This document shows, in pieces, positions 14,130 to 41,126 of a DNA stretch of 63,608 bases (the first letter of the stretch is position 1; every line of letters starts with the position of its first letter). The stretch covers positions 1 through 63,608 of IMG/VR virus record IMGVR_UViG_3300046499_000378; one strand, written 5' to 3'. The DNA comes from a virus. The notes under the pieces were generated by a model. That model had not been told where the DNA came from. It worked only from the letters and a program-made list of their open reading frames with translations, and ran no database searches. The position numbers and the translations under genes were made by a program.

Positions 14130-14642
14130 TCAGGCCAGGCCCTTGAGGCCGTTCTCGAGGGCCTTGCGGTCTTCGTCGCCGAGAACGAAGGTCGTGGTGG
14201 TCTTGCCGTTCGTCGTGGTCTCGACCTTGATGGGGGCATCGAGGCCGTCAAGGTCGCGTAGCTGCTTACATGCGTCGAGGGCGTTCTTGAGATCGGGGGC
14301 CGCGATCCTCATGGGCTTGGAGGTGTCCTTGGGATCCATCACCGGCTTGCCGTCCGGGGTGCGCAGGACCACCGATTTGTTGACCGCCATCGACTGGATG
14401 GTCTCGAGCCGCAGTCGCATGAGGTTGCGCCGATCCTCACGGACCTCGTCGACGGCCGCGCTCGCCTTGAACCGAGCGTAGACCTCGCGGATCCACTTCC
14501 CGACTGTCGAACCGTGCACCCTGTACTTCCCGACGAGCAACCCCTTCACACGCCCTTCCGGCAGCCGGACAAGATGGTCCTCGACGTCGGCGTAGATCGC
14601 CTCCATCTCGAGCCGCGTACGCCTGCCAGAGCCGGTGCTCAC
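14130..14642 (-). CDS. terS: Terminase small subunit
   Basis: 170 residues. A helix-turn-helix-like stretch (KYRVHGSTVGKWIREVYARF, ~39-58) is followed by a long helical oligomerisation part and a short C-terminal tail, the usual TerS plan. It would recognise the packaging site and load TerL. Its ATG overlaps the folE stop by four bases (ATGA), tying packaging genes to the DNA-modification operon. Confidence 0.75.
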   Translation of the reverse strand: MSTGSGRRTRLEMEAIYADVEDHLVRLPEGRVKGLLVGKYRVHGSTVGKWIREVYARFKASAAVDEVREDRRNLMRLRLETIQSMAVNKSVVLRTPDGKPVMDPKDTSKPMRIAAPDLKNALDACKQLRDLDGLDAPIKVETTTNGKTTTTFVLGDEDRKALENGLKGLA

Positions 14643-15199
14643 GTGCGGATCCCCATCAGCGCCATGGCCTCCGCGCGCGCGGGTGCGTCATCGGCGAACA
14701 CGCCACGCACGCACGACGTGCGCATCTCGCCGGGGGACTCGATACCGCGCAGTCCCATGCACGTGTGCCGCGCCTTGACCACGACCATCACCCCCACCGG
14801 GGTGAGGCCAGTGACCAGGGCATCGGCGATCTGCTGGCCGATGCGCTCCTGGAGCTGGAGCCGCCGGGTGATCGCGCGGACCAAGCGCGGTATCTTCGAT
14901 AGCCCCACCACGCACTCGCCTGGGATGTATGCCACCGACACCGTGCCGGTAAACGGGAGCACGTGATGCTCGCACAACGATGCGAACGTGATATCGGCGA
15001 CCGACACGATCCCCGGGTCTTTGGGCGACGGGAACGTCTTGAGGAGCTTGGTGATGTCGGTGTTGTAGCCCTCGGTGAGCTCACGCAGCGCGCGGAGCAT
15101 CCGCCGCGGGGTCTCGCGATCGACCGTGGCGCCGAGGTCGGTCAGCAGATCGCGGATGGTTTCGATGGCCGATGTGGAGATCATCAGATTGTCGGTCAT
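14639..15199 (-). CDS. folE: GTP cyclohydrolase I (FolE)
   Basis: 186 residues. It converts GTP to 7,8-dihydroneopterin triphosphate, the first step of 7-deazaguanine synthesis. Zinc ligands are visible: Cys76 in LCEHHVLPF, with His78/His79, and Cys147 in ARHTCMGLRG. The family length is complete, without a large extension. It is the last gene of the que/dpdA operon and overlaps terS by four bases. Confidence 0.93.
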   Translation of the reverse strand: MTDNLMISTSAIETIRDLLTDLGATVDRETPRRMLRALRELTEGYNTDITKLLKTFPSPKDPGIVSVADITFASLCEHHVLPFTGTVSVAYIPGECVVGLSKIPRLVRAITRRLQLQERIGQQIADALVTGLTPVGVMVVVKARHTCMGLRGIESPGEMRTSCVRGVFADDAPARAEAMALMGIRT

Positions 15200-15202
15200 G
15201 GA

Positions 15203-15841
15203 CTACTCGATTCCGAGGAACTTGTGGGTCTGTAGGGACAGGCGCCACTCCGGGTGAGCTTGCACGTACTCGACGAGCTTGGCTTCAACATCCGGCGATC
15301 GGCCGTCCGGGTCGGCTTGGGGTTGTAGGAATCGGTGATGCGCGGTGAACGAGGACCACTCCTCGGGAGCATACGCCGGCCACACGAGCTTGAGCTCGTC
15401 GGCTTGTAGAAGTCGGATTCGCGACTTGGCTACCTTGGGCGACAGCGTCACGTAGACGAAGCCGCGATACTTGAACATGGGCTCGGTCGTGCCGTTGGTC
15501 TCGATCTGCACCCGTGCATTGAGGGGCGCCAGGAACTCAAGCATCTCGTCGTCCACCTGGAGCATCGGCTCACCGCCGGTGAGGACGATCAACCGCCGCG
15601 GACCAAGATCCCGGACGCGCGCGGCGATCTCGGCAGCCGTGACGCGCTCGCGCGACTGGAAGTCTGTATCGCACCATCTCGGACACTCGGCCTCGTTACG
15701 CTCGGCATCACGCTCGCGGTTGGCGTCAATGCCGCTCCACATGTTGCAGCCGCCGAACCTGACGAATGCGGCCGGAGTACCGGCGAGCGCGCCCTCACCT
15801 TGGATGGTCCCGAACACCTTGACGATGGAGTAGGTCTTCAT
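15203..15841 (-). CDS. queE: 7-carboxy-7-deazaguanine synthase (QueE, radical SAM)
   Basis: 212 residues from MKTYSIVKVFG. It makes 7-carboxy-7-deazaguanine from 6-carboxytetrahydropterin. Residues 10-18 (FGTIQGEGA) and the VLTGGEPML motif are typical. The iron-sulfur cysteines are Cys32, Cys53 and Cys57, a wide C-x20-C-x3-C spacing instead of the compact radical-SAM motif, as in other QueE-type enzymes with inserts. It lies between a small unknown gene and folE in the modification operon. Confidence 0.93.
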   Translation of the reverse strand: MKTYSIVKVFGTIQGEGALAGTPAAFVRFGGCNMWSGIDANRERDAERNEAECPRWCDTDFQSRERVTAAEIAARVRDLGPRRLIVLTGGEPMLQVDDEMLEFLAPLNARVQIETNGTTEPMFKYRGFVYVTLSPKVAKSRIRLLQADELKLVWPAYAPEEWSSFTAHHRFLQPQADPDGRSPDVEAKLVEYVQAHPEWRLSLQTHKFLGIE

Positions 15842-15842
15842 A

Positions 15843-16160
15843 TCACCCTTCGTTGGTATGCTTGAGTAGTCTGTAGTGGCAGTCATCGACCGCCGCGATC
15901 AACGAGCCGTAGTTGTCGGCGTCGGTCGGGATGTGGCTGGCGTACGCCCGATCCGAGAACGTGAACGCGATGGCCACGCCTGTCACGCGGCGATCATGCT
16001 GGCCGCGCACGAACTCGAGAGCATCCTCGAGCATCTTGATTGCCGTGGCGTGCGCGCGGTCCTCGTACTCGCGATCGGCTTCCGCGGCGATCTCGAGGCG
16101 GGTCTTAAGGCGGATGATCGAGCCATCGTTGCACGGGATGTCAACCTTGATGTCGCTCAT
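15843..16160 (-). CDS. Hypothetical protein in the deazaguanine operon
   Basis: 105 residues. The N-terminus is acidic/basic helical (KTRLEIAAEADREYEDRAH), and the C-terminal half reads FTFSDRAYASHIPTDADNYGSLIAAVDDCH. It is coupled by an ATGA overlap to the queF-like gene. The C-terminal pattern resembles small phage proteins of unknown role. Being embedded between queF and queE makes a link with the pathway possible but unproven. Confidence 0.7.
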   Translation of the reverse strand: MSDIKVDIPCNDGSIIRLKTRLEIAAEADREYEDRAHATAIKMLEDALEFVRGQHDRRVTGVAIAFTFSDRAYASHIPTDADNYGSLIAAVDDCHYRLLKHTNEG

Positions 16161-16540
16161 GGCTCACCCCGGGTCGCCACCGCCATCGGGCTGATCCCAC
16201 CGCGCACGTTGAAGCGTCCGGTGACCGTCACCCGACGCGGCCGGACCTGCTTGAAGAAGTCATCCGCGATGGTCGCGATGATGACCTCGTTGAACGCGGC
16301 CTTGTTGCGAAACCGCCGGAGATAGAGCTTGAGGCTCTTGGTCTCGACGATCACGCCGGCCGGCACATACTCGATCACCAGCTGACCGAAGTCTGGGTGC
16401 TTGGTCACCGGACACAGCGACGTGAACTCGAGGCAATCGAGGGTCACGACCACCGCGCCATGCGTCCAAGGGATTAAGTCGAGCTTGTTCACGGCCGACT
16501 CGGAGTTCTTTCCGAGGTGCCGCGTGTTGTACTTGATCAT
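16157..16540 (-). CDS. queF: QueF-like preQ0 reductase
   Basis: 127 residues. The family reduces preQ0 to preQ1 with NADPH. The catalytic Cys43 (SLCPVTKHPDF), Asp50 and the VETKSLKLYLRRFRN nucleotide motif (65-79) are present, as is the RGGIS end. The usual FHE substrate triad reads FNE (83-85), so the His is Asn. The length fits single-domain QueF. It overlaps dpdA by four bases. It points to 7-aminomethyl-7-deazaguanine as the final DNA base, if the His change is tolerated. Confidence 0.85.
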   Translation of the reverse strand: MIKYNTRHLGKNSESAVNKLDLIPWTHGAVVVTLDCLEFTSLCPVTKHPDFGQLVIEYVPAGVIVETKSLKLYLRRFRNKAAFNEVIIATIADDFFKQVRPRRVTVTGRFNVRGGISPMAVATRGEP

Positions 16541-17301
16541 GTGGTCTCCGTCGGTTTGAAGATGGCGAGGGTGGATGCCCACCGCCGTACAAGGGTTTGC
16601 TCCAGCGACCACATGGCCTCCATGCCATTCTGGACGCCCTGCGTGTTCGATTCGCGGCCCTCTACCGAGAGGTGGATCTGCACCCGCTTACCGCCGCGCT
16701 TGAACTTCCAGTTGCGGAAAGCGGGCCCGGCCACACCCCATGTCGCCGCATCGGCCGAATGAAACGGGAACCTCACTAGCGCGTCCTCGTCCACCCAGCC
16801 GAACGAGTGGTACTTGTGCGGCCACACCCGCGCGAAGCATTGCTCGTAGTACCGGAGCGACGTCGCCATGGGTTCGCCAAACCGGCACGACAGACCGACC
16901 TTCGGGAAGTTGGCGCAGTACCACTCGAGCAGGTCCCATGGATCGCCGATGTGGTGGACGGGCATCCCCTTGGTGATGCCACGGGCGAGAGCGTACTCGG
17001 CGTTTCGCTTCGAGCCCTGCCAATCGCCGATCACGTCGAGCCCGACCGCCTCGTCCCATTTCGACTTCGCGGTCTCAGCCAGCAACGCATCGTGGTCGAC
17101 TGCCTGACCAAGGGTGTACGCGGTGAATGCACCGGAATCGAGCATCATGGACTTCGGCCGCCGGAAGTATGGCTCCACCGTCTGCCATTGCTTGAGGTAC
17201 GCAAACGACACGAGGATCGAGAGCGGGCGTGCCTCCCAATTCCACCGCCGCGCGGCCTCGAGCTGGCTGGTTCCCGGCCCGGCGAAGTACACGGTGGTCA
17301 T
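16537..17301 (-). CDS. dpdA: DpdA-like DNA 7-deazaguanine transglycosylase
   Basis: 254 residues, a TGT-like TIM barrel of the small phage type. Motifs: MMLDSGAFTAY (Asp55) and AVGLDVIGDWQGSKRNAEY (Asp89), with VHHIGDPWDLLEWY after them. Asp55 and Asp89 are candidate catalytic residues. The family exchanges guanine for preQ0/preQ1 in DNA, unlike bacterial TGT which acts on tRNA. It lies in one operon with queC, queE, queF and folE, which strongly supports a DNA-modification role. Confidence 0.88.
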   Translation of the reverse strand: MTTVYFAGPGTSQLEAARRWNWEARPLSILVSFAYLKQWQTVEPYFRRPKSMMLDSGAFTAYTLGQAVDHDALLAETAKSKWDEAVGLDVIGDWQGSKRNAEYALARGITKGMPVHHIGDPWDLLEWYCANFPKVGLSCRFGEPMATSLRYYEQCFARVWPHKYHSFGWVDEDALVRFPFHSADAATWGVAGPAFRNWKFKRGGKRVQIHLSVEGRESNTQGVQNGMEAMWSLEQTLVRRWASTLAIFKPTETT

Positions 17302-17978
17302 GGATGGCCCTTGACCGGTCCGGTGAAGCGTTGCGCGGGATCGAACGGCTTGATCTGGCCGGCCTCGAACGCCGATTCGGGCCCTTGGGGAAGGACGTTG
17401 ACCACGCTCCCACCATCGGCGATCACCCGGTCGAGCTCCGCCATCGGGTCGGTCTCGGCAACCGGTGCCAGCCCATTACCGAAATCGTCGGCCACGTCGG
17501 CCTTGGGCCAGAACCCAGGTCGGATGAACACCGCCGGATCCTGCGTCAGCTTTTCGACGAACCGCGCCGATGAAGCGATCGCGTCGAGCTCGCCGGTCGA
17601 CATCGGCGCACCGGCCACGATGTGAGGCTCGGTATACTCATCGGCGTTAGCGATCCGCATCCCACCGCTATAGCCGAACTTGGCGTCTGGGGACGGTGTG
17701 CCTCGTCCCAGAGCATCTTCCCATTGCGACTCGGGGCCGCCCGGGACAACCACGGCCTCGGTTCGCAGCTCCACACCATGGAGGTCGACGAGGATCGCCG
17801 GCACCTCAACGGTGGCCACGACCTTCTCGTGGCGCGATCCGATGCGCAGGACGAGTGACAGGGCCGGGATGAACACCTCCTCACCATCGGGCAGCTCCAT
17901 CACCACGGCGACGTCTTGGCCAGTGAGCTGCGCCTGGTTCGTCCGACCGCCGACGATCTTGATCTTGCCGTGGCGCAT
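17298..17978 (-). CDS. Unknown protein in the deazaguanine operon
   Basis: 226 residues. The N-terminal ~90 are beta-rich (KIKIVGGRTNQAQLTGQDVAV, then VATVEVPAILVDLHGVELR), and the rest is acidic and Pro/Gly-rich, partly disordered. The start is preceded by AGGAG. It overlaps dpdA by four bases and the upstream gene by one (TAATG), so it is co-translated with the enzyme. No family is recognised. An accessory factor for DpdA or an unrelated phage gene are both possible. Confidence 0.7.
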   Translation of the reverse strand: MRHGKIKIVGGRTNQAQLTGQDVAVVMELPDGEEVFIPALSLVLRIGSRHEKVVATVEVPAILVDLHGVELRTEAVVVPGGPESQWEDALGRGTPSPDAKFGYSGGMRIANADEYTEPHIVAGAPMSTGELDAIASSARFVEKLTQDPAVFIRPGFWPKADVADDFGNGLAPVAETDPMAELDRVIADGGSVVNVLPQGPESAFEAGQIKPFDPAQRFTGPVKGHP

Positions 17979-18361
17979 TACGCGACTCCTCGGTTGCTAA
18001 CCATCTTCACGATGTGGCTGGGTGCACCAACGAGCCACGTATGAGCGTTCTGTGGCGTCCCGTTGACAGACAAGAACGCGTGATCGATCTCGGGGAGACC
18101 GGCCCGCCAATACAGCCGACCTATCTCATCATGCTTGAGTCCGACCACCAGCCATCCCAGAGGCGTGCGCACCTGGAACCAATGCCCGAAGAACGTGGCG
18201 CGATGGCCAAGGATGGAGAACGGGGTGAGCTCACCATCGGACGATAACCGCCCGTTCTTGAGCTCGCGAAGTCCGACGCACACGAGCCAGCGCCGGATGC
18301 GGCACCACATCGGACGATCATCGAGGTGCCACCGTTCGCCGTTCCACACGTAGGTCTTCAT
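17978..18361 (-). CDS. Unknown small protein after queC
   Basis: 127 residues, Trp-rich (nine or more Trp), with basic and hydrophobic patches (WCRIRRWLVCVGLRELKNGR). It overlaps queC by four bases (ATGA). It has no signal peptide and no recognised family. Tight coupling on both sides places it in the modification operon. Confidence 0.7.
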   Translation of the reverse strand: MKTYVWNGERWHLDDRPMWCRIRRWLVCVGLRELKNGRLSSDGELTPFSILGHRATFFGHWFQVRTPLGWLVVGLKHDEIGRLYWRAGLPEIDHAFLSVNGTPQNAHTWLVGAPSHIVKMVSNRGVA

Positions 18362-19302
18362 GGCCGATCCCGTCGGATCATCGGCACGGCGTCGTGCGCG
18401 ATGACGTCACGCTCCTCGAAGTCATGGAGACCATCCGGGACCAGTTGGACCACGGTGGGATCGAACTCCATCTCGGTGAGCTTGTCGGACACCGCCTGAT
18501 CCAAGGCGGGATCGAATGCAGCCGACCTAGCTGGATCCGGCACGCCGGCTTCATCGAAGCCTTTCGCCCGGAGGAGGCATGCCGGACACGTGGCGCAGCC
18601 CGGCCGGCACCCGCGGTAGCACGTGACCGACGTTCCCAACGCGCGCCAGACGTCAGTCTGCTGCCATTCCTGGCTGGGTTGGGGAACGCCGAAGGTCGCC
18701 GAGACCATCCGGCCGGCAACGGTCTCGTCTTTGGCCAGGCCGATCATCATGGCGACCGTCTCGGCCTTCGTCCGGCGCATGAGCGGGGCCTCGATGAGAA
18801 TCGGCCTGATCGCCGTGGGCATCGCCTCGTTGACCGCCCCCGACATCGCATCCACGAACTCAGCCCGGCAATCCGGGTAGCCCGAGTAGTCGGTCTGACA
18901 GACCCCCGTGACGATCGTTCCAGCGCCAAGGGCCGCCGCATGCGCTCCGGCGATCGCCATGAACACCAGGTTGCGGCCGGGAACGAAGGACGTGGGCAGC
19001 CCGTTGGGCGCAGCGACGTCGGCAAGTCCGCCATCTGGCTTGATGGTCTCCTGACTCTTGCTGAGCAAGGCCGACCCCGATGCGGCGAAAACCCCCGACA
19101 GGTCGAGCACGGTGTGCGTCGCACAACCCAGGAGCTTGGCGATCGATTTGGCCGACGTGACCTCGGTGGCGTGCCGTTGGCCATACAGCATGGTGAGCGC
19201 ATGTAGTCGCGCCCCGGTGTATTTCTTACGCGCCCATGCCAGGCACGTTGTGCTGTCCTGTCCACCGGACAGGAGTACGAGGACATCGGTAATTGGCTTC
19301 AT
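18358..19302 (-). CDS. queC: 7-cyano-7-deazaguanine synthase (QueC)
   Basis: 314 residues. It converts 7-carboxy-7-deazaguanine to preQ0 with ATP and ammonia. The PP-loop SGGQDST is at 12-18. A Cys cluster for zinc lies at 228-242 (CYRG...CATCPACLLR). Usual QueC ends shortly after this cluster; here ~70 more residues follow, an atypical C-terminal extension. The start carries the GACCGACC leader. There is no fused amidotransferase domain, so an archaeosine-type product is less likely than preQ0/preQ1. Confidence 0.93.
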   Translation of the reverse strand: MKPITDVLVLLSGGQDSTTCLAWARKKYTGARLHALTMLYGQRHATEVTSAKSIAKLLGCATHTVLDLSGVFAASGSALLSKSQETIKPDGGLADVAAPNGLPTSFVPGRNLVFMAIAGAHAAALGAGTIVTGVCQTDYSGYPDCRAEFVDAMSGAVNEAMPTAIRPILIEAPLMRRTKAETVAMMIGLAKDETVAGRMVSATFGVPQPSQEWQQTDVWRALGTSVTCYRGCRPGCATCPACLLRAKGFDEAGVPDPARSAAFDPALDQAVSDKLTEMEFDPTVVQLVPDGLHDFEERDVIAHDAVPMIRRDRP

Positions 19303-19396: not shown

Positions 19397-20005
19397 CTAG
19401 TTTGCGTCTGATAGCTGGGCTGTCAGTCGCGCCACGATGCCATCGGCGGTGACTTTCCGGCCACCCATGGCGGTCTTGAGGGCCTCGATCTGGTCCTCGG
19501 AGAACTTGATCGAGGTTCCCTTGCCGGGCGTATCGAATTCCTCGCCGGTGTTGGCCGGTGGCTTCCACTCGGCCTCCATGAGCGGCTCGTACTCGAACGG
19601 TTCCCACCCGAGGGCTGACACATCGACGCCGAGGTCTTTGAGTTCCCGGAGCTCCGAACCCAGGTTCGGAAGGTCCCATTCGGCGAGGTCCGCCGTTCGG
19701 TTGTCCCGGAGCGCGTACGCCTTGGCCTCCTTGTCGGGAACATCAAGGACCACGGCCGCGATATGGGTCCACCCCATCCGGGACGCGGCCTCGGTCGAAG
19801 CGTTGCCAGCTCGGATGACCATCGTCTTGCCGGCGTCGGTCTTGGCCTGGACCACGATGGGCTTGAGCTGGCCATGGGCGGTGAACGACTCGATCACCGC
19901 GGCGAGGTTGCGCTCGTCGTGGGCCCGAGCGTTTCGAGGGTCCGGGGTCAATGACGAGATTTCGACCGCCAAGTGAGCCAGGCTATTGTGGATTTTGTGG
20001 TTCAT
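19397..20005 (-). CDS. ParB-like domain protein
   Basis: 202 residues from MNHKIHNS. The ParB/sulfiredoxin-type N-terminal fold is visible: SLTPDPRNARAHDERNLAAVIESFTAHGQLKPIVV (read in pieces), then an IRAGNASTEAASRMGW box and an ALRDNRTADLAEWD segment. The usual GxRR box is altered to GNAST. The C-terminal part has a linker and a short helical tail. There is no ParA partner, so it probably acts as a phage DNA-binding or nuclease-like regulator, not in partition. A sigma70-like promoter lies just upstream. Confidence 0.75.
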   Translation of the reverse strand: MNHKIHNSLAHLAVEISSLTPDPRNARAHDERNLAAVIESFTAHGQLKPIVVQAKTDAGKTMVIRAGNASTEAASRMGWTHIAAVVLDVPDKEAKAYALRDNRTADLAEWDLPNLGSELRELKDLGVDVSALGWEPFEYEPLMEAEWKPPANTGEEFDTPGKGTSIKFSEDQIEALKTAMGGRKVTADGIVARLTAQLSDAN

Positions 20006-21675: not shown

Positions 21676-21872
21676 GGTTCATCCCGTTCTGCGATGGCGG
21701 CTGGGCTCGCGTGAACACATTCACGGCACATGTAGTGCCCGTCGGTCTCGCAGTGCCCGTCTGGTGTTCCTGGTGAGAAGTCATCGGATGGACATGGATG
21801 ATCGACGTCGCGGCCGATCTTGTCGATGCCGATCCATGAGCGCACCAACTCCTTGACGTTTGGATTTTTCAT
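21672..21872 (-). CDS. Small Cys/His-rich hypothetical protein
   Basis: 66 residues from MKNPNVKELV. The C-terminal half has Cys and His spaced like a zinc site (HPCPSDDF, GHCETDGHYMCRECVH). The start ATGA overlaps the upstream stop. Function unknown; it belongs to the accessory gene cluster. Confidence 0.5.
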   Translation of the reverse strand: MKNPNVKELVRSWIGIDKIGRDVDHPCPSDDFSPGTPDGHCETDGHYMCRECVHASPAAIAERDEP

Positions 21873-22879
21873 GTCCAATCCCGCCAGTTGGAGTTCGCTT
21901 CGTCAACCTCATCGGTTGCCGTCAGGTCGGCATGGCCGACGGTCTCGACGCCACCGGGCTGACCGAATCGACCGGTCTGGATCCGCTTCCAGCCATCGGC
22001 ATCGGGTGTGATCTTGGCGAGCCACCGCCGCGCCCGTCGGACGTGCGGGTTTTTGTCTGACACCTCGATGATGACGAACTCGAGGGCGTACCACTTCGCC
22101 ATGTACCAGCGCTCCGTTGCGCAGTACGCGAGCTTGACCAAGCCCTCGCGCGGACCAGCCACCACAACGTGCGCCCGATCCTCTCCTTTGGCGAAACCAC
22201 GCACGTAGACAACCGCACCGAGCTTGAGCTTGGCGATCTTCTCGGTGCGCGCACGCTCCTTGCCGCGAGCGTTGGTGCATTCGAGGCAAGGACCGGAGTA
22301 CATGCAGACCCCGGCCGCGTTCGTGTTGGTGCAGCGCGGGATCGAGTCATCGTTCCCACGACGGTTTCCGCCTGCCACCGTGATGATCGCTTGTGCCAGG
22401 CGCTTGCCATCGAAGGTCGCTTGCTTGGCACCCTCACGATCGATCCCGGTGGTCGCCATCACCTTCGCGATCATGTCTTCATCTGGCGGCTCCCATCCTA
22501 CGAGCGCCCGCATGACATCGGCGATGGATGCCAACACCTCGACCTCGCCGGCCTCATAGACCACGGAGTCGGCCGGATCGACTCCGACGAGCAGCACGCG
22601 CTTGTTGCGCTTTGCGAGGGCCGCGCCGAGCTCGACGTGCGAACCCCTGCCGAGCCGCGACACACCGACGAACAGGTCACACGAGCTGGCCGCCTCTATC
22701 TCACGCCGCGCCAAGTCCTTACGGTCGGCCACGTCGCACACACCAGGTGAGCACACGTGGTTGAAATGCATGTGCCACGGGAAGGCATTGCGCATCCCCT
22801 GGTTCTCCAGGTGCATCGCAAGCGTCGCGACATCGGCAAGCCCATCACGGCTCGAAGCGATGTAGAAGCTTCCTCTCAT
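21869..22879 (-). CDS. Nucleoside 2-deoxyribosyltransferase-like protein with C-terminal extension
   Basis: 336 residues. Residues 1-110 have the NDT/TIR-like fold pattern: FYIASSRD at the start, SCDLFVGVSRLG (Asp68) and SHVELGAALAKRNKRVLLVG with a candidate nucleophile Glu83. A Cys-rich linker (CMYSGPCLECT, ~200) leads to a ~120-residue unrecognised domain with aromatic residues. NDT enzymes move deoxyribose between bases. In a phage with modified DNA it could edit the nucleotide pool. It could also be a base-excising effector. Confidence 0.65.
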   Translation of the reverse strand: MRGSFYIASSRDGLADVATLAMHLENQGMRNAFPWHMHFNHVCSPGVCDVADRKDLARREIEAASSCDLFVGVSRLGRGSHVELGAALAKRNKRVLLVGVDPADSVVYEAGEVEVLASIADVMRALVGWEPPDEDMIAKVMATTGIDREGAKQATFDGKRLAQAIITVAGGNRRGNDDSIPRCTNTNAAGVCMYSGPCLECTNARGKERARTEKIAKLKLGAVVYVRGFAKGEDRAHVVVAGPREGLVKLAYCATERWYMAKWYALEFVIIEVSDKNPHVRRARRWLAKITPDADGWKRIQTGRFGQPGGVETVGHADLTATDEVDEANSNWRDWT

Positions 22880-23944: not shown

Positions 23945-24715
23945 TTAGAACAGGGCGAGCTGCGCCGTCGACGGTTGCGGCTGCTCGGGTTGAGGTTGCT
24001 GTGCTCGTTGATGTTCGGTTGGTTGCCCACCGCGGTCACGCGAATCGTGCGCAAGGCGCATGGTCCATCCGCCGAACACGTGAGCTGGAGTATACCACCT
24101 GGCACGCTCCTCCATGCGGAGCGTGTCGCCGACGATGACGATCCCAGGCACGCCGACCAGCGACAGCTGGACGTATGCCATGTGAGCCGCGCGCTCGTCG
24201 ATGTCTTGAACGGTGACATGGAGGCGGTCCTGGTACGCGATGCCAGCGTCCTTCATCGCCGCGCACAGCGCGAGCGGCATAGCGCCGCCACCGACGGCCG
24301 GATCGCTAGCTGTGATGAATGGGCGCTCGTTGAGCATCGGTTTAATGTCGACGAGGGTCATCTCGGCCATCATGCGACACACCGGGAACGGGGTGAAGAA
24401 CTGGCCGGCCCACTTCGAGCCGAGTTCGAGCTCCATGAAGGTCCGGCCAAGGATGTCGTCGATGCCCTCCTCGAGCTCGAGGGTCAACGCGCCGAATGCC
24501 TCCGCGATCCGCTGTAGGGTCGGCGAGTCGTACCGCCGCGCGATCGCCATGTATCGCTCCTCGCGGCTCACGCGCTGCCACACGTCAACACCGTTGGAGA
24601 TCGCGATCGCTGCCATCTCGACGAAGTCCGACCACACCGACCACAGATCGCTCTTGTCGGTTACCCTACGGATGTGCTGCGCGATCGTGCGCCGCACCGT
24701 CTCGCGCTTCACCAC
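23945..24715 (-). CDS. N6 DNA methylase-like protein lacking the catalytic NPPY
   Basis: 256 residues. The N-terminus (~20-115) is helical, as in type I methylase M subunits. Then come FFTPFPVCRMMAEM and the SAM-binding DPAVGGGAMPLAL motif. After VTVQDIDERAAHMAYVQLSLVG and VGDTL, the expected NPPY/F is absent and the text reads ERARWYTPAH. The end is a Gln/Pro-rich tail. It probably binds SAM but may not methylate DNA. Such proteins are common in phages. Confidence 0.72.
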   Translation of the reverse strand: MVKRETVRRTIAQHIRRVTDKSDLWSVWSDFVEMAAIAISNGVDVWQRVSREERYMAIARRYDSPTLQRIAEAFGALTLELEEGIDDILGRTFMELELGSKWAGQFFTPFPVCRMMAEMTLVDIKPMLNERPFITASDPAVGGGAMPLALCAAMKDAGIAYQDRLHVTVQDIDERAAHMAYVQLSLVGVPGIVIVGDTLRMEERARWYTPAHVFGGWTMRLAHDSRDRGGQPTEHQRAQQPQPEQPQPSTAQLALF

Positions 24716-27785: not shown

Positions 27786-28112
27786 TCATCGTTGAAGGGT
27801 CGACACGGGCTTGAGGAGCTGCTTGATGCGGAACACCTGTTGTTCTTCCCATGCCTCGCGTTCGGCGCGGATCATGATCTTGAACGGCTGGCTCGCGGCA
27901 TGCCAGCTGTTGTGGTGGACGGCGCACAGCGGGATCGTGTCGTGGTCGTGCGACCGTCGATCGCCGCCCTTCATGGGGGCCCTGGCCACGCGTCCCGTGC
28001 TCCTGTGGTGCGCCACGATGATGCCCCCGCATGGATGCGCGGCGGACATGAAGCGTGCCGCACACGGCAGCTGGACGACGCGCACGAGGTAGTCTTTATC
28101 CTCACCGGCCAC
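27786..28112 (-). CDS. HNH-type nuclease-like protein
   Basis: 108 residues. Zinc and catalytic residues are visible as CAARFMSAAHPCGGIIVAHH, DTIPLCAVHHNSWH and a basic tail. The two Cys/His pairs and the HH pair fit an HNH/DUF968-like nuclease. It could nick DNA during recombination or packaging. Its start lies within the last ten bases of queD. Confidence 0.7.
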   Translation of the reverse strand: MAGEDKDYLVRVVQLPCAARFMSAAHPCGGIIVAHHRSTGRVARAPMKGGDRRSHDHDTIPLCAVHHNSWHAASQPFKIMIRAEREAWEEQQVFRIKQLLKPVSTLQR

Positions 28113-28560
28113 CGCGGAACCCCCGTCCTGACATCGTGGCCGAGGAGTTCGGGGTCTCGAATAGCTGGACGCTCGCGATCACGACACCGGTGGGAGCCAG
28201 CAGCTCGTGGGCTTTGTCGAACAGGAACGCGGCGAGGGTTTCGGCGGTTGGCTCCGCGGTGAACGCGAACGGCTTGCGATGCCCATGGCGCAGCGCCTGC
28301 GACGAGGCGAACTCCAGGAGCTCATGGTCGTCCTGGTTGACCAGCGTGGCGTGGTCCCACGTCGCATCGATCCAGCCGCCGACGCGCTCCTTGATGACGC
28401 CGAAGTCGATGACGCGATCACAGCTGTCGAGCACCGACGCCGTGCAGCTCAAGAGCGCGGCGTACCGGTGGCCGTGCAAGGTCGCGCACTTCGACTCGTG
28501 ACGGAGCACGCGATGAGCACTGTCCCACTCGAGCCTCCGGGTGATGACCATATGCTTCAT
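28102..28560 (-). CDS. queD: 6-carboxytetrahydropterin synthase (QueD)
   Basis: 152 residues. It converts dihydroneopterin triphosphate to 6-carboxytetrahydropterin. Zinc His are at 16 (WDSAHR) and in the CATLHGHRY motif (Cys25, His29, His31), with the DFGVIKERV and DHATLVN segments typical of the family. It is separated from the other que genes by ~9 kb. The start could also be MVIT at 28551. Confidence 0.92.
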   Translation of the reverse strand: MKHMVITRRLEWDSAHRVLRHESKCATLHGHRYAALLSCTASVLDSCDRVIDFGVIKERVGGWIDATWDHATLVNQDDHELLEFASSQALRHGHRKPFAFTAEPTAETLAAFLFDKAHELLAPTGVVIASVQLFETPNSSATMSGRGFRGGR

Positions 28561-29064: not shown

Positions 29065-29303
29065 GACGCCTCGATAACCGCGAACCACCCCGGCGACTTC
29101 CGGTTGATGATCCCGCGCGACAAGTCGACATCGAGAGCGTCTTGGGTCTCGTACACGAACCAGATTCCTTGTTCTCCGACGGGCTGCACCGTGACCACGA
29201 GATCCTCTTCGTGGCTCGCCAGGAACGCCAGGTCACGGGCGACCGAATAGAGATCGTCTCCCGCAGCCCTCCTCCCACGCTGGGTGATCCCGGCGAACTT
29301 CAC
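29061..29303 (-). CDS. Small hypothetical protein
   Basis: 80 residues from GTG (29301-29303) that overlaps the ParB-like stop (GTGA). Mixed alpha/beta, with YSVARDLAFLASHEEDLVVTV in the middle. No family is recognised. Confidence 0.55.
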   Translation of the reverse strand: MKFAGITQRGRRAAGDDLYSVARDLAFLASHEEDLVVTVQPVGEQGIWFVYETQDALDVDLSRGIINRKSPGWFAVIEAS

Positions 29304-30331
29304 TTGGCCAGTTCCTTGCGGGCCTTGGACAGCATGCCGAGGAGGGTGGCGTCGTCGCACTTGCCGAAGAACAGCTTGAACGCCGCCTCAACGCCGACGT
29401 AGAACGCATCCACCGTGTGGCGCTGCTCAACGGTGATACCGGACTTCCCGTCCTCATCGTCGATCAGAACGCGGGCCTCGTCGGCGATCTCGCCGGTGTG
29501 CTTGGCGATCGTCTTGAGGACGTGACCGAGCTCGCGGCGCGACGGGATGAGTCCCGTGCCGTCCTCGGCGATCTTGCCGGTCGCACGCTTGGCCGCTTCG
29601 GTGGCATCACGCACCGTTGTCGGCTTGCCGCTCTTGGCCTTCTCGCGAACGTTGGCCAACGCCTTGTTCTGGGCCTCACCGGACTTCGCCGTCTGGACGA
29701 GCGCAACCCCCGCCGTGGCCGACATCTCGCCGGCCGACACCGCCGCCTTGACTTCGTCGGTGGCCGTATCGTCGTACGCCAGGAGCAAGCGGAAGTACTC
29801 GAGGTCGAGTCCGAACGTCATCGCGGCGTTCTTCTCGGAGACCCCGGACGCCAAGAGTCGCTTCGCCTTGTCGAGCTTCACGAGCGGTCCATCATCGTCG
29901 CGGACCGCGTTCTCGGCGATCATCACGCCGATCAGCCGCGTCGGGTCGTCCTTCGACGGACGCTCGATCGAGCACGTGATTTCGATCAGCGGCACACCAC
30001 GGGCCGCGCGCAGCAAGTTGGCCCTACGAGCGCGGCGGATGCGACCACGACCAGCCACCACCATCGGGATACCGGTCTCCGGGTCCTTACGGATGATCGG
30101 ATTCTGCAGCACCCCGTAGTGGTCAACGTTAGCCACCTGGTCATCCGTTACCACCACAGTCTCCAGGCGCTTATCCCACAGGTCGTGCTCGCCCTGCTTA
30201 TGGGCGGTGTCGAGCGGCCCTTGCTCATTCTTCGGGAGGCACTTGCCGCCGATGATGCAGAGTTCTTCCGGGAAGAAGACGGGGTTGGACGTGTAGTTGG
30301 TGTCGAATGCTTTCTTGCTGGACATGGTCAT
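29300..30331 (-). CDS. ParB-like DNA-binding protein
   Basis: 343 residues. The ParB N-terminal domain is seen as VLQNPIIRKD...VVAGRGRIRRARRANLLRA (the GRxR box). It is followed by ENAVRDDDGPLVKLDKAKRLL and a helix-turn-helix-like stretch (VSEKNAAMTFGLDLEYFRLLLAYDD). The C-terminal third is Lys/Ala-rich. It is probably a regulator or DNA-condensing protein, as no ParA is nearby. The start is M1 or M3 (30325). Confidence 0.8.
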   Translation of the reverse strand: MTMSSKKAFDTNYTSNPVFFPEELCIIGGKCLPKNEQGPLDTAHKQGEHDLWDKRLETVVVTDDQVANVDHYGVLQNPIIRKDPETGIPMVVAGRGRIRRARRANLLRAARGVPLIEITCSIERPSKDDPTRLIGVMIAENAVRDDDGPLVKLDKAKRLLASGVSEKNAAMTFGLDLEYFRLLLAYDDTATDEVKAAVSAGEMSATAGVALVQTAKSGEAQNKALANVREKAKSGKPTTVRDATEAAKRATGKIAEDGTGLIPSRRELGHVLKTIAKHTGEIADEARVLIDDEDGKSGITVEQRHTVDAFYVGVEAAFKLFFGKCDDATLLGMLSKARKELAK

Positions 30332-32414: not shown

Positions 32415-32680
32415 GGTGCCCTCGCGACTCGCGACACGCCGCGCGACGGTGATTTTACGACGTGACCGATCCAGTCGTACGCCAGGCTCTCGAGGGAGCG
32501 CGAGGCGATCGCTTGAGCATCGCGGTACGTGGCGGCTTTGACCTTGAACAACACCGCCATCCGAACCGGACGATCGATCGTCGGTGATGGCTCGCTGAAA
32601 ATAGCTGCTCCGGCGACCACGGCCGGCGTGTGGGTGATGTCGAGTATCAAGACTGCATACGCGGTGTGCTTCATGCCCAT
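32411..32680 (-). CDS. Small hypothetical protein
   Basis: 89 residues. The start at 32680 is preceded by AAGAAG; an in-frame MKH lies two codons later. Mostly beta-rich, then a basic helical end. It overlaps the RuvC-like gene by four bases and the methyltransferase by ten. Unknown function. Confidence 0.55.
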   Translation of the reverse strand: MGMKHTAYAVLILDITHTPAVVAGAAIFSEPSPTIDRPVRMAVLFKVKAATYRDAQAIASRSLESLAYDWIGHVVKSPSRGVSRVARAP

Positions 32681-33261
32681 GGGAGCTTCTTTTGTTCGCG
32701 GGTTCCGACGTGGCGCTCGAGTGGACTGGCGACCTCAATCCCTGGTTCGACCAGTTTACTCCACACCAGCCATGCACAAGTCACCGAGTCGGTCTTGCCG
32801 TCGCCGGTGAACGAGATCCGTGGCAACACGAGCTGCCTTGTCGGTGGACGGCGCGATAGGAGGTGCGCGCGTTGCTCGGTCGGCTCTAAGAACGAAAGCC
32901 GGAGCAAGAACGCCACGCCCTCGGTGGCGAAGTCGAGCGCGCAGGTCAGGATCTGGTGTGCGAGGTTGAACGGTGGATTTGTGATCACCCATGGGACGCG
33001 CGGGAACATGCCCCACGCGGCCGGCGTCGCTGCGTTGAGGTGGTAGGTGGCGGCGCGCTTCTCGTCGACGTCGTTGGTCCATGCGACGTCTTCGCGGCCG
33101 GCAATCAGGTCGCCAGTCCCTACGCACGGCTCGGCCACGTCGTGGATGATCGGGATGCGCCGGTAGAGCGCGCGAGCTGCCCACACCGGCGTTGGCTTGC
33201 CGGCGATGATCGGCTCGGCGCCGCCGCCGGTTGGATAAAAGTCATGCTCTCGTCTACTCAT
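32671..33261 (-). CDS. DNA adenine methyltransferase-like protein
   Basis: 196 residues. The SAM site EPCVGTGD is at 44-51 and the catalytic NPPF at 95-98. Both motifs are complete, unlike the other methylase-like gene in this genome. It should methylate adenine N6 in DNA and add a second layer of restriction protection. The short length and lack of a target-recognition domain suggest a simple or relaxed specificity. Confidence 0.85.
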   Translation of the reverse strand: MSRREHDFYPTGGGAEPIIAGKPTPVWAARALYRRIPIIHDVAEPCVGTGDLIAGREDVAWTNDVDEKRAATYHLNAATPAAWGMFPRVPWVITNPPFNLAHQILTCALDFATEGVAFLLRLSFLEPTEQRAHLLSRRPPTRQLVLPRISFTGDGKTDSVTCAWLVWSKLVEPGIEVASPLERHVGTREQKKLPWA

Positions 33262-35268: not shown

Positions 35269-36315
35269 TTACGCGGCTTCGGGCTTGGACTTGGCTTTGG
35301 ACTTGGCCGGCGACTCGGTGGTCACCGCGGCGACCACACCACCGCTGTTGAGCTGCGCGGTGTTCGCGGCCTTCTCGGCCTCCGTGGCCTCTGACTTGGC
35401 CGCGTCGGGCTTGCCGTCCTCGGTGGTCGTGTTAGTTGTCGTCTCTGGCTTGGTGTCGGGCTTGGCGTCGTCGGTGGACTGCCCGGACAGGTCCATCGGG
35501 ATCGGTGCCACCGAACCATCGTCGATCCCGTTGATCCGTTTGACCCACGAGGCGAAATCCGTGACCTCCGAGTCACGGAGCGGGGGATATGGCTTGACCT
35601 TCATGTGGTCGGGGCCCGTGGTGGCGATCCCGTACACCATCGGCCGCTGCTTGGTCTTCGGGTCGGCAGTCACCGAGCGACGGCGGTAGGTGATACCGAC
35701 GACGTTCACGGCCGCCATGAGGACATTTGGGAGCGCTTTCATCGGCATCTGCGGTCCCACCCACCGCGACTTCTCGTCGCCCTCGCCGATCTCTTTGTCG
35801 GCTAGGAGGGCCAAGAACAGCACGTGGCGCGGCACGTCGCGGAACGCGCGCACGAGCTTCGCCGTGCGATCGGAGAGCACGTTCCAGTAGCGTTCGCTAT
35901 CGACGGGCAGCCCATCTTTGCCGGTCTTCTGGGGCGATTGCTCTCGGATCTCCTTGGAGACCATGTCGGCGATGTCGGTGATGGAGTCGAGGACGATGGT
36001 GTCCGGCCAGACCTCGAGCTCGAGGATCTTGGCGCCTTCGTTGTCCAGCACAACGAACGGCTTCGCCTGGTCTCCGTGCAGGGCCTTGAGCACGTGACGG
36101 TAGTCATCGAGGGATTCCATCACGAGGGTGTGGGGCCGTGGCCGTCCCATCCGCTTCGCCGCGTCGCGCACGTTGGCGACGGCCTGGCGCTCGGAGAGCA
36201 AGATGAGCGGGTTGGGAGCCGAGACCCCGAAGTTGGTCTTGCCCGATCCGGACTCGCCGTAGATCAGGGCCTTGAGCCACACGGCGGTGTTGTCATCGAA
36301 ATTCACAGTCTTCAT
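35269..36315 (-). CDS. Sak4-like RecA-type ATPase
   Basis: 348 residues. The P-loop GESGSGKT is at 20-27, and IVLDSITDIADMV gives a Walker-B-like strand. The RecA-like core is followed by a long Lys/Thr/Ala-rich C-terminal tail. The start MKTVNF is chosen for its GGAATG upstream; two earlier in-frame ATGs exist. Sak4 proteins act as single-strand annealing recombinases with SSB, as this neighbourhood suggests. Confidence 0.8.
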   Translation of the reverse strand: MKTVNFDDNTAVWLKALIYGESGSGKTNFGVSAPNPLILLSERQAVANVRDAAKRMGRPRPHTLVMESLDDYRHVLKALHGDQAKPFVVLDNEGAKILELEVWPDTIVLDSITDIADMVSKEIREQSPQKTGKDGLPVDSERYWNVLSDRTAKLVRAFRDVPRHVLFLALLADKEIGEGDEKSRWVGPQMPMKALPNVLMAAVNVVGITYRRRSVTADPKTKQRPMVYGIATTGPDHMKVKPYPPLRDSEVTDFASWVKRINGIDDGSVAPIPMDLSGQSTDDAKPDTKPETTTNTTTEDGKPDAAKSEATEAEKAANTAQLNSGGVVAAVTTESPAKSKAKSKPEAA

Positions 36316-36392
36316 AAGCATTCCGATCATTCGCCGGACACAGCCGGCTGGTGCTTTGTGGTGTTGCGCCCGACAAGGCGGGCTGTACGTGG
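36316..36392 (-). promoter_or_regulatory. Two short hairpins before the Sak4-like gene
   Basis: GCCGG/CCGGC (in plus-strand gccggacacagccggc) and GCCCG/CGGGC (gcccgacaaggcgggc) lie in tandem between the coiled-coil gene and the ATPase gene. They lack a U tract. They may be weak terminators or translation controls; no promoter was recognised. Confidence 0.35.
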
Positions 36393-38701: not shown

Positions 38702-38779
38702 TGGAGCCGGTGGCGGGTCTCGAATCCGCAGTTGCACGGGGTGCTAACCCGCCGTGTTTACCAATTTCACCACACCGGC
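38702..38779 (-). tRNA. tRNA with AGC anticodon (isotype uncertain)
   Basis: The cloverleaf folds well on the minus strand: acceptor GCCGGTG/CACCGGC, D-arm GTG/CAC with GG in the loop, anticodon stem GCGGG/CCCGT with loop TTAGCAC, short variable loop, T-loop TTCGAGA, then T and an encoded CCA. The anticodon AGC would read alanine GCU. But the alanine G3-U70 pair is absent (C-G), the discriminator is U, and the last T-stem pair is A-C instead of G-C. The charge is therefore uncertain. Confidence 0.8.
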
Positions 38780-39620: not shown

Positions 39621-41126
39621 TCAGATCGCGAACACCGCCGATACCTTCGACGTGTCGCCGGACTCTACATCTTCGGAGTGCAAGAACACAACGTCGTCCG
39701 ACTCCTGCTTGAGGATGGCATCGGGTTCACACCCAATCGCAACCGTGTAGAGGTGGCCGCCGCGCCCCTTGATGCGCTTGATCTGCGCCGCCTGAGCTTC
39801 GTAGTCGCCAGACTGGCCATCGGTCACGAGGATCACATCGGCGCGCTTCCACGGACCTTCGTTGCGCTCCATGACGTTGGCGCACTCGGTGAGGGCAGCA
39901 CCGATGGACGTACCGCCACCGGTGAAGTACGTCACCGCGTCGGCGATGGCCTTGAGGTCGATCTTGCGCGCATCGGGGAACGCGTCGACGCGCGTAACGC
40001 GGCCGTCGAAGTGCACCAGGTACACGGCTCGGTTCTGACGTGCGGCGATCTCGAGGAGGCCGAACATCACCGCCTTGGACCATTCATCGGGTGCACCCGA
40101 CATCGAGCCAGACTCGTCGACGGCGAGGATGATGGGGCCCTCGGCCTTTTTCTCCTTGCCGCGCATGTCGTACTGCAAGGCCGCCCGCTCGCCGAGTTTG
40201 CGGAACAACAGCGCCTCGGTGGTGTCGTCGGACAGCATGCCGATCTCGACGGGCAGGAGCCGGGTGATGTTGTCGCCCTGCGTGACGTCGCAGATCTCCT
40301 CGTGGCCGATCTTGGCCTTGGTCCGCTGCTTGTACACCGCGGCGGCCTTCATCCGGCCGGCCAGCGCGGCAACCCGGCGCAGCTTGGCGTTCTTGAGGAG
40401 CTCGTTACGAAGCTGCGCCGGTGGAACCGATGTACGGGAAGCGAGGCCGGTGCCATCGCCGCCGCACATACCGGCCATCGCGGAATCCATCTCGTCGATG
40501 GCCTTCTGGGCCGCGATCGCTCCACCGCGCATGGCGGACCGAATCGATGCCTGCTTGATGGCGAGGTGCTTGGTGGCAGCACCAACCGCCTGCATCGCCG
40601 ACTGGTGGGCCTTCTGGAGCGACGCCATCCGGCGCAAATGCTGTGGCGTGGTCTTGCCGGCGTCCATGAGCGACTTCACGAGCTCGAGCTCGTCGGCGAT
40701 CTTCTGGGGGTCCTCCGCGGGTGGCGTGACCTGTTCGGCGAGAACCTTGAGTGCTTCGCCGGCCGCGATCCCGCATGCCCATGCGTCGCGTTGCGCGCGT
40801 TGCTGGAGTGCGCGCCATTCGGGCAGCGCCTCGGCGGTCTCATGTAGCTTCTCGACCCATTCCGAACCGTCGGGACGGTTCTCCGGTTTCAGCTCCTTGT
40901 GGGTCACGGAGCCGTACAGCTTGGAGAACACTTCGCGGGCGAAACCGGCCCATGCGGATCCGGGATGACGTTCGAGGGCATCTCCGAACGAGCCGCCCGC
41001 GGCGGCTTCGCCAGCGGCCACGTACCGATCCCACTTCGGTACCGGGATGGTCGCATCGGCGCCGTTCTTGAGTTCGGCGACCACATCGGTTTTTTTTAAC
41101 GGGGTCTTGGGTTGCGCGTTGGTCAT
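39621..41126 (-). CDS. VWA-domain protein (ViaA/CoxE-like)
   Basis: 501 residues. The C-terminal ~165 form a von Willebrand A domain with a MIDAS: Asp337, Ser339 and Ser341 in VDESGSMSG, a Thr in GGGTS and Asp436 in VTDGQSG. The N-terminal ~330 are helical and poorly conserved. Such proteins are activated by MoxR ATPases, and one lies just upstream. The pair probably remodels a target complex; the target is unknown. Confidence 0.82.
   Translation of the reverse strand: MTNAQPKTPLKKTDVVAELKNGADATIPVPKWDRYVAAGEAAAGGSFGDALERHPGSAWAGFAREVFSKLYGSVTHKELKPENRPDGSEWVEKLHETAEALPEWRALQQRAQRDAWACGIAAGEALKVLAEQVTPPAEDPQKIADELELVKSLMDAGKTTPQHLRRMASLQKAHQSAMQAVGAATKHLAIKQASIRSAMRGGAIAAQKAIDEMDSAMAGMCGGDGTGLASRTSVPPAQLRNELLKNAKLRRVAALAGRMKAAAVYKQRTKAKIGHEEICDVTQGDNITRLLPVEIGMLSDDTTEALLFRKLGERAALQYDMRGKEKKAEGPIILAVDESGSMSGAPDEWSKAVMFGLLEIAARQNRAVYLVHFDGRVTRVDAFPDARKIDLKAIADAVTYFTGGGTSIGAALTECANVMERNEGPWKRADVILVTDGQSGDYEAQAAQIKRIKGRGGHLYTVAIGCEPDAILKQESDDVVFLHSEDVESGDTSKVSAVFAI

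What the first reader, a model, noticed from the sequence alone, without database searches (positions are those of the whole stretch)
14639..19302. Complete 7-deazaguanine DNA-modification pathway coupled to the terminase genes
folE, queE, queF-like, dpdA-like and queC form one overlapping operon, with queD at 28102-28560. The DpdA-like enzyme implies insertion into DNA, and QueF points to preQ1 as final base. The folE stop overlaps the terS start, so modification and packaging genes are translated from one message. Deazaguanine modification of phage DNA is established for other phages; the exact base and coupling here are inference.
Basis: partly seen in the sequence, partly recalled or inferred. 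Interest (0 to 1): 0.7.

Follow-up and report, generated by a model that had tools for sequence, protein, structure and literature searches.

The report
Phage deazaguanine DNA-modification operon beside terminase
This uncultivated tailed phage carries all the genes to make a modified guanine and swap it into its own DNA, most likely as armour against host restriction enzymes; the pathway is a known one, but one of its enzymes lacks an active-site residue that ordinary versions keep, so the exact base it makes is open.

Summary
On the minus strand, ParB–QueC–(g28)–(g27)–DpdA–QueF–(g24)–QueE–FolE–TerS–TerL run as one tight block, with QueD about 9 kb upstream. FolE's stop overlaps the terS start (GTGA). 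A relative (DpdA 92% identical) keeps every gene, all under purifying selection. DpdA keeps every residue shared with DpdAs of phages whose DNA is known to be modified.

The system is a known kind: the ParB–DpdA–Que–FolE–terminase cassette of Rosebush-type mycobacteriophages (Rosebush DNA: about 28% of G is preQ0), plus queF. ParB-linked DpdAs cluster on the tree, and a terminase follows FolE in up to 15 of 24 ParB-type loci against 2 of 23 others. Terminase adjacency is therefore recurrent, not peculiar to this phage.

'QueF therefore preQ1' is weaker than stated. This QueF keeps the catalytic Cys, Asp, Glu and NADPH motif, but active-site His96 is Asn. All 16 ParB-linked phage QueFs examined lack it; 8 of 9 without ParB and all 24 high-scoring cellular QueFs keep it. 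preQ1 remains the likeliest base, not a secure one. Verdict: new member of a known kind, with one testable enzymatic oddity.

The parts
19397..20005 (-). ParB-domain protein, first gene of the block; probable partner of DpdA
   Evidence: PF02195 E 4.5e-08, PHROG 620 E 4.9e-31; 92% identical in the relative; ParB next to DpdA in most related loci
18358..19302 (-). QueC, 7-cyano-7-deazaguanine (preQ0) synthase
   Evidence: PF06508 E 4.3e-57, TIGR00364 E 4.5e-54; SGGQDS and four-Cys Zn site; no glutamine amidotransferase domain fused
17978..18361 (-). g28, unknown; found only in this phage and its closest relative
   Evidence: no family hit; 77% identical in L002, dN/dS 0.19; no other locus in viral contigs
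17298..17978 (-). g27, unknown; fastest-changing small gene of the block, with indels
   Evidence: no family hit; 68% over aligned residues in L002, dN/dS 0.29; structure model not usable
16537..17301 (-). DpdA, DNA guanine transglycosylase (TGT-like TIM barrel)
   Evidence: PHROG 887 E 1.1e-30; D55, D89, N100, H117, H165, D184 shared with CAjan, Rosebush-species and Dp-1 DpdA; AF2 pLDDT 86.5 and best structure matches to phage DpdAs
16157..16540 (-). QueF (preQ1 synthase family, unimodular) with Asn in place of the active-site His96
   Evidence: TIGR03139 E 2.6e-34; Cys, Asp, Glu and ETKSLKLYL kept, His96 is N
15843..16160 (-). g24, unknown; between queF and queE
   Evidence: no family hit; present in L002 (87%) and L010 (32%), absent in L110
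15203..15841 (-). QueE, 7-carboxy-7-deazaguanine synthase, with cluster motif CX20CX3C
   Evidence: TIGR04508 E 1.6e-47, PHROG 2076 E 3.4e-27; Cys spacing conserved in L002, L010, L110
14639..15199 (-). FolE, GTP cyclohydrolase I
   Evidence: PF01227 E 4.5e-54; CEHH and RHTC motifs
14639..14642 (-). GTGA overlap: folE stop and terS start
   Evidence: GTGA here, ATGA in L002, TGATG in L110
14130..14642 (-). small terminase subunit, assigned by position
   Evidence: no family hit; conserved between FolE and TerL in L002 and L110
12438..14126 (-). large terminase subunit
   Evidence: PHROG 38 E 2e-62; 94% in L002, 84% in L110
28102..28560 (-). QueD, 6-carboxytetrahydropterin synthase, outside the block
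   Evidence: PF01242 E 1.6e-25, PHROG 2389 E 1.4e-33; 92% in the relative's contig

Best explanation
The genes make a 7-deazaguanine base and put it into the phage's own DNA, most likely to block host restriction enzymes. FolE, QueD, QueE and QueC turn GTP into preQ0. The QueF-family enzyme most likely reduces preQ0 to preQ1. DpdA then exchanges guanines in finished DNA for the base; the ParB-domain protein at the head of the block probably helps DpdA act on DNA. Expression together with terS/terL would place modification late, just before packaging. Shown here: the gene set, motifs, conservation, recurrent ParB and terminase linkage. Inferred: activity, final base (my estimate: preQ1 about 55%, preQ0 about 20%, another derivative about 20%, archaeosine about 5%), the role of ParB, timing, and protection.
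For: Families and motifs. DpdA residues shared with three experimentally modified lineages and fold matches to phage DpdAs. Purifying selection on every gene of the block. The order ParB-DpdA-QueC-QueD-QueE-FolE-terminase in Lephleur, NCBI species Rosebushvirus rosebush; Rosebush virion DNA carries dPreQ0 at about 28% of G (PMC6884629). Streptococcus phage Dp-1 with QueF and DpdA carries dPreQ1 (genes). Deletion of dpdA in phage CAjan removes the modification and the resistance to restriction (PMC6884629). ParB carriage is clustered on the DpdA tree (7 changes against 32 in shuffles); bacterial Dpd systems also pair DpdA with a ParB-like DpdB (PMC12839542). The NADPH motif speaks for a reductase.
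Against: No virion DNA measured. His96 of QueF is lost, which could change rate or product. Linkage does not prove that ParB works with DpdA; a DpdB-specific match was not obtained. QueD lies 9 kb away, so control is not wholly shared.
Confidence: 0.72

Rival explanations
1. The QueF-family enzyme of ParB-linked phages is no longer a plain preQ0-to-preQ1 reductase: without His96 it stops at an intermediate, or makes another 7-substituted deazaguanine, or acts on preQ0 already in DNA, so the final base is neither preQ0 nor preQ1.
For: All 16 ParB-linked phage QueFs examined lack His96 (C, N, T, Q), in two or three separate groups of the QueF tree, while 8 of 9 without ParB keep it and all 24 high-scoring cellular QueFs from one bacterial class and one further genome keep it. 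The gene is under purifying selection, so it is not decaying.
Against: Cys55, Asp62, Glu97 and the NADPH motif are kept. The published family definition does not include His96 (PMC5372742). Some divergent cellular QueFs carry Gln there. The phages are related, so the events are few.
Confidence: 0.18
2. QueF is an archaeosine-type amidinotransferase (QueF-like) and the base is archaeosine.
For: Phage QueFs have been called QueF-like by HHpred (PMC6884629); the Asn for His change shows that the enzyme is not standard.
Against: The solved QueF-like (5jyx) lacks the NADPH motif (AIEEFKKMV) yet keeps His-Glu; the window protein is the reverse: motif kept, His lost. Dp-1, with a QueF-family protein, makes dPreQ1 and no dG+.
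Confidence: 0.05
3. The genes raise queuosine in host tRNA rather than modify phage DNA.
For: FolE, QueC, QueD, QueE and QueF are also queuosine genes; some phages carry them without DpdA (PMC6884629).
Against: A DpdA of the DNA-acting phage family is embedded and overlaps queF; the MAG holding the closest genome-derived relative has its own QueF; the same kind of cassette modifies Rosebush DNA.
Confidence: 0.05
4. Functional coupling of modification to packaging: terminase, ParB and DpdA act together so that modified DNA is what gets packaged (an addition to the best explanation rather than a replacement).
For: Terminase downstream of FolE in up to 15 of 24 ParB-type loci against 2 of 23 others; FolE/terminase overlap in L002, L110 and Nicole72; ParB with other DNA-modification enzymes also lies upstream of terminase.
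Against: Adjacency may only mean a shared late transcript; many phage genes overlap this way; in Cellulophaga phi38:2 and Arthrobacter Mufasa8 the ParB-DpdA cassette is not next to terminase.
Confidence: 0.12

Closest known systems
Mycobacterium phage Rosebush / Lephleur (Rosebushvirus rosebush) preQ0 cassette
   Same: ParB, DpdA, QueC, QueE, FolE then terminase, with FolE overlapping the terminase gene; dPreQ0 measured in Rosebush (PMC6884629)
   Different: no queF; queD inside the block; order of DpdA and QueC reversed; host Mycobacterium
Mycobacterium phages Funsized and Rinkes
   Same: ParB-QueF-DpdA-QueC-QueD-QueE-FolE and, one gene further, terminase; QueF also lacks His96 (Cys)
   Different: queF before dpdA; adenylate kinase between FolE and terminase; no measured base found here
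Streptococcus phage Dp-1
   Same: FolE, QueC, QueD, QueE, QueF and DpdA; dPreQ1 measured (PMC6884629)
   Different: no ParB and no terminase nearby (DnaN and RecB instead); QueF keeps His96
Cellulophaga phage phi38:2
   Same: QueF, DpdA, ParB, QueC, QueD, QueE clustered; QueF lacks His96 (Gln)
   Different: next to DNA polymerase III beta and primase, not terminase
Bacterial Dpd system (DpdA plus ParB-like DpdB, preQ0/ADG)
   Same: TGT-like DpdA with a ParB-superfamily partner (PMC12839542, PMC6392294)
   Different: defence system with restriction genes; DpdC makes ADG; homology of this ParB to DpdB not shown

Membership tests
Phage 7-deazaguanine DNA modification (DpdA pathway) | FolE, QueD, QueE and QueC encoded | tested here: met
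Phage 7-deazaguanine DNA modification (DpdA pathway) | DpdA with the residues shared by DpdAs of modified phages | tested here: met
   D55, D89, N100, H117, H165, D184
Phage 7-deazaguanine DNA modification (DpdA pathway) | 7-deazaguanine nucleoside in virion DNA | not testable with these tools
   no virion; metagenomic contig
DpdA1 rather than DpdA2 | conserved histidine (196 in phage 9g) present | tested here: met
   H165 aligns with CAjan H187; that this is 9g His196 is inferred, as 9g DpdA itself was not aligned
TGT superfamily fold | TIM barrel most like TGT/DpdA | tested here: inconclusive
   model pLDDT 86.5; best named BFVD hits are phage queuine TGTs, but PDB hits are only generic TIM barrels
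QueF (preQ1 synthase, unimodular) | Cys55, Asp62, Glu97 | tested here: met
   criteria from PMC5372742
QueF (preQ1 synthase, unimodular) | QueF motif E(S/L)K(S/A)hK(L/Y)(Y/F/W) | tested here: inconclusive
   ETKSLKLYL: one position (T for S/L) departs, the rest fits
QueF (preQ1 synthase, unimodular) | active-site His96 (kept in canonical cellular QueFs; not part of the published definition) | tested here: not met
   Asn; His in all 24 high-scoring cellular QueFs sampled
QueF-like archaeosine synthase | NADPH-binding QueF motif absent | tested here: not met
   motif present here, absent in 5jyx
DpdB (ParB-like partner of bacterial DpdA) | ParB-superfamily domain in the dpdA cluster | tested here: met
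   PF02195 E 4.5e-08; here QueC and two small genes lie between ParB and DpdA, in most relatives they are adjacent
DpdB (ParB-like partner of bacterial DpdA) | specific homology to DpdB, ATPase needed for insertion | tested here: inconclusive
   PADLOC gave only a ParB-methyltransferase model; no DpdB sequence compared
QueE subfamily TIGR04508 | cluster motif Cx14CxxC | tested here: not met
   CX20CX3C, conserved in relatives; score 162 below the cut-off 240

The most novel reading that the evidence does not exclude
ParB-linked phages carry a distinct QueF branch in which loss of the active-site histidine has changed the chemistry, so these phages make a 7-deazaguanine base in DNA other than preQ0 or preQ1, from a cassette expressed with the packaging genes.
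Probability: 0.18. Interest if true: 0.62.

Novelty: new member of a known kind. Interest (0 to 1): 0.36.

Why it matters
It extends the ParB-DpdA-Que-terminase cassette, known from actinobacterial siphoviruses, to a phage with a contractile-tail gene set, possibly infecting a delta-proteobacterium. It gives two testable points: whether ParB is the phage counterpart of DpdB, and whether QueFs without His96 still make preQ1. If they do not, phage genomes annotated 'QueF, hence preQ1' would need revision.

Tried and rejected
Near DNA matches in the phage collection: none. g27 and g28 were sought in viral contigs: only the one close relative; the AF2 model of g27 is useless (pLDDT 30); g24, g27 and g28 do not resemble the two unknown genes beside Cellulophaga queF, so I do not propose them as extra modifying enzymes. 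A ParB-DpdA fusion was sought in the fetched loci: none, though one BFVD hit named 'ParB/Sulfiredoxin' matches the DpdA fold weakly. Foldseek against PDB gave only generic TIM barrels. The paper on further phage deazaguanines (NAR 2023, gkad657) could not be read, so whether 'QueF' without His corresponds to an enzyme named there is untested. Rosebush's own record is not held; a member of the same NCBI species was used. Promoter and terminator scans were at chance. The idea that the operon is a recent import finds no support: third-position GC of its genes is within 1.6 sd of the window's genes.

Full report
What was checked. The window is an IMG/VR virus record of 63,608 bases. A gene call puts nearly all genes on the minus strand. 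Structural genes include a large terminase, an SPP1-like portal and a weak tail-sheath match, so it is probably a myovirus. The named genes were all confirmed by Pfam, PHROGs and NCBIfam, with their catalytic motifs. Read in the direction of transcription the block is ParB, QueC, g28, g27, DpdA, QueF, g24, QueE, FolE, TerS, TerL; QueD lies apart at 28102-28560. A longer queF start (16612) is possible in the open frame but not needed: the ATG at 16540 overlaps the dpdA stop.

Real and conserved. The closest relative, IMGVR_UViG_3300011438_000011 (L002/L090), has the same block gene for gene and QueD at 92%. dN/dS runs from 0.07 (TerL) to 0.31 (QueC). A 4.7-kb contig binned in a delta-proteobacterial MAG (L110) has DpdA-QueF-QueE-FolE-TerS-TerL in the same order, with TerL 84% identical and no g24. 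That hints at the host group, but phage contigs can be misbinned. L010 has DpdA-QueF-g24-QueE-TerS-TerL without FolE.

DpdA. The protein is short (254 aa), but its clade is of about that length. Residues D55, D89, N100, H117, H165 and D184 are kept in DpdAs of CAjan, the Rosebush species and Dp-1, all lineages with measured 7-deazaguanines (PMC6884629). AlphaFold2 gives a confident barrel whose best named viral structure matches are phage queuine transglycosylases. Against PDB only generic TIM barrels rank, so the fold test is supportive, not diagnostic.

ParB and terminase. Eighty IMG/VR loci with DpdA relatives were scanned with profiles of each pathway gene. Two layouts dominate: ParB-DpdA-(QueF)-QueC-QueD-QueE-FolE, and QueE-QueC-QueD-FolE-DpdA without ParB. 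ParB carriage clusters on the DpdA tree (7 changes against a shuffled mean of 32; quick tree). The chosen large ORF within 3.5 kb after FolE is a terminase in up to 15 of 24 ParB-type loci (summing three terminase types, assumed disjoint; two of the 24 were already annotated as terminase) against 2 of 23 others, where DNA polymerases and helicases appear (Fisher p 2e-4, or 4e-4 with 13 of 22; relatedness of the phages ignored). Mycobacteriophage CRB2 was published with a ParB-superfamily gene, DpdA and QueC-E as ORFs 1-5 and the terminase genes as ORFs 7 and 8 (PMC6392294). Lephleur, of the Rosebush species, has the FolE gene overlapping the terminase gene. Three ParB relatives inspected also sit just before terminase beside other DNA-modification enzymes: Kovu (PAPS-reductase-like), Javan486 and T280 (methylases). 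Whether it means more than shared late expression is unknown.

QueF and the base. The family criteria Cys55, Asp62, Glu97 and the NADPH motif (PMC5372742) are kept apart from one motif position (T for S/L). The solved archaeosine-type QueF-like lacks the NADPH motif and keeps His-Glu, so the window protein is not of that type. But the residue at His96 of B. subtilis QueF is Asn here and in L002, L011, L016 and L110; Cys in Funsized, Rinkes, Mufasa8 and seven metagenomic loci; Thr in L017; Gln in phi38:2; Gly in L010. It is His in Dp-1, HVTV-1, R26L, R5C, Pan1, L129 and L149; the one non-ParB exception is L147 (Met). All 24 high-scoring cellular QueFs taken from the class of the L110 MAG and one further genome have His; four divergent, lower-scoring ones have Gln and one Arg. 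Crystallographers replaced this His by Ala in V. cholerae QueF (4ghm), which suggests catalytic interest; its exact role is from general knowledge. The pattern rests on two or three groups in the QueF tree, so the number of independent events is small. It lowers, but does not overturn, the inference to preQ1.

Novelty. The pathway, DpdA chemistry, preQ1 in phage DNA and the ParB-DpdA-FolE-terminase layout are all on record. What I did not find described is the systematic loss of His96 in ParB-linked QueFs, with the caveat that the 2023 paper most likely to touch on it was not readable here.

Noticed in passing
window 15203-15841 (-), residues around the first cysteines: QueE has cluster-binding cysteines spaced CX20CX3C instead of CX14CX2C; the same in L002, L010 and L110, and CX18CX3C in L137, so it is not a sequencing error.
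   Followed up: partly
L007 670-2751; L015; L017; L022; L028; L037; L049; L083: Several related phages carry two or three dpdA paralogues in one cassette; why is unknown.
   Followed up: no
L110 1-4656: The closest genome-derived relative lies in a delta-proteobacterial MAG of about 8 Mb that also has its own His-bearing QueF; possible host group.
   Followed up: partly
window 21869-22879 (-): By eye the N-terminal part looks like a nucleoside 2-deoxyribosyltransferase, but Pfam, PHROGs and PADLOC gave no hit. Aminobacter phage Erebus has a gene annotated as nucleoside deoxyribosyltransferase amid its que genes.
   Followed up: no
window 23945-24715 and 32671-33261 (-): Two probable DNA methyltransferase-like genes (PF02384 E 4.4e-05; PHROG 799 E 1.5e-27): the phage may use more than one DNA modification.
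   Followed up: no
window 29300-30331 (-): A second ParB-like protein (PHROG 1033 E 2e-12), upstream of QueD.
   Followed up: no
window 38702-38779 (-): A single tRNA gene, tRNA-Ala with anticodon AGC, an unusual anticodon for a bacterial alanine tRNA.
   Followed up: no
window 39621-41126 (-): A von Willebrand factor A domain protein (CoxE-like, PF05762 E 3.6e-13) a few kb from an AAA protein at 35269-36330 (PF13479).
   Followed up: no
L179-L182 (cellular genomes): Divergent cellular QueF paralogues with Gln at the His96 position and ELRSFK(Y/F)YL as motif, like the Gln of Cellulophaga phage phi38:2.
   Followed up: no
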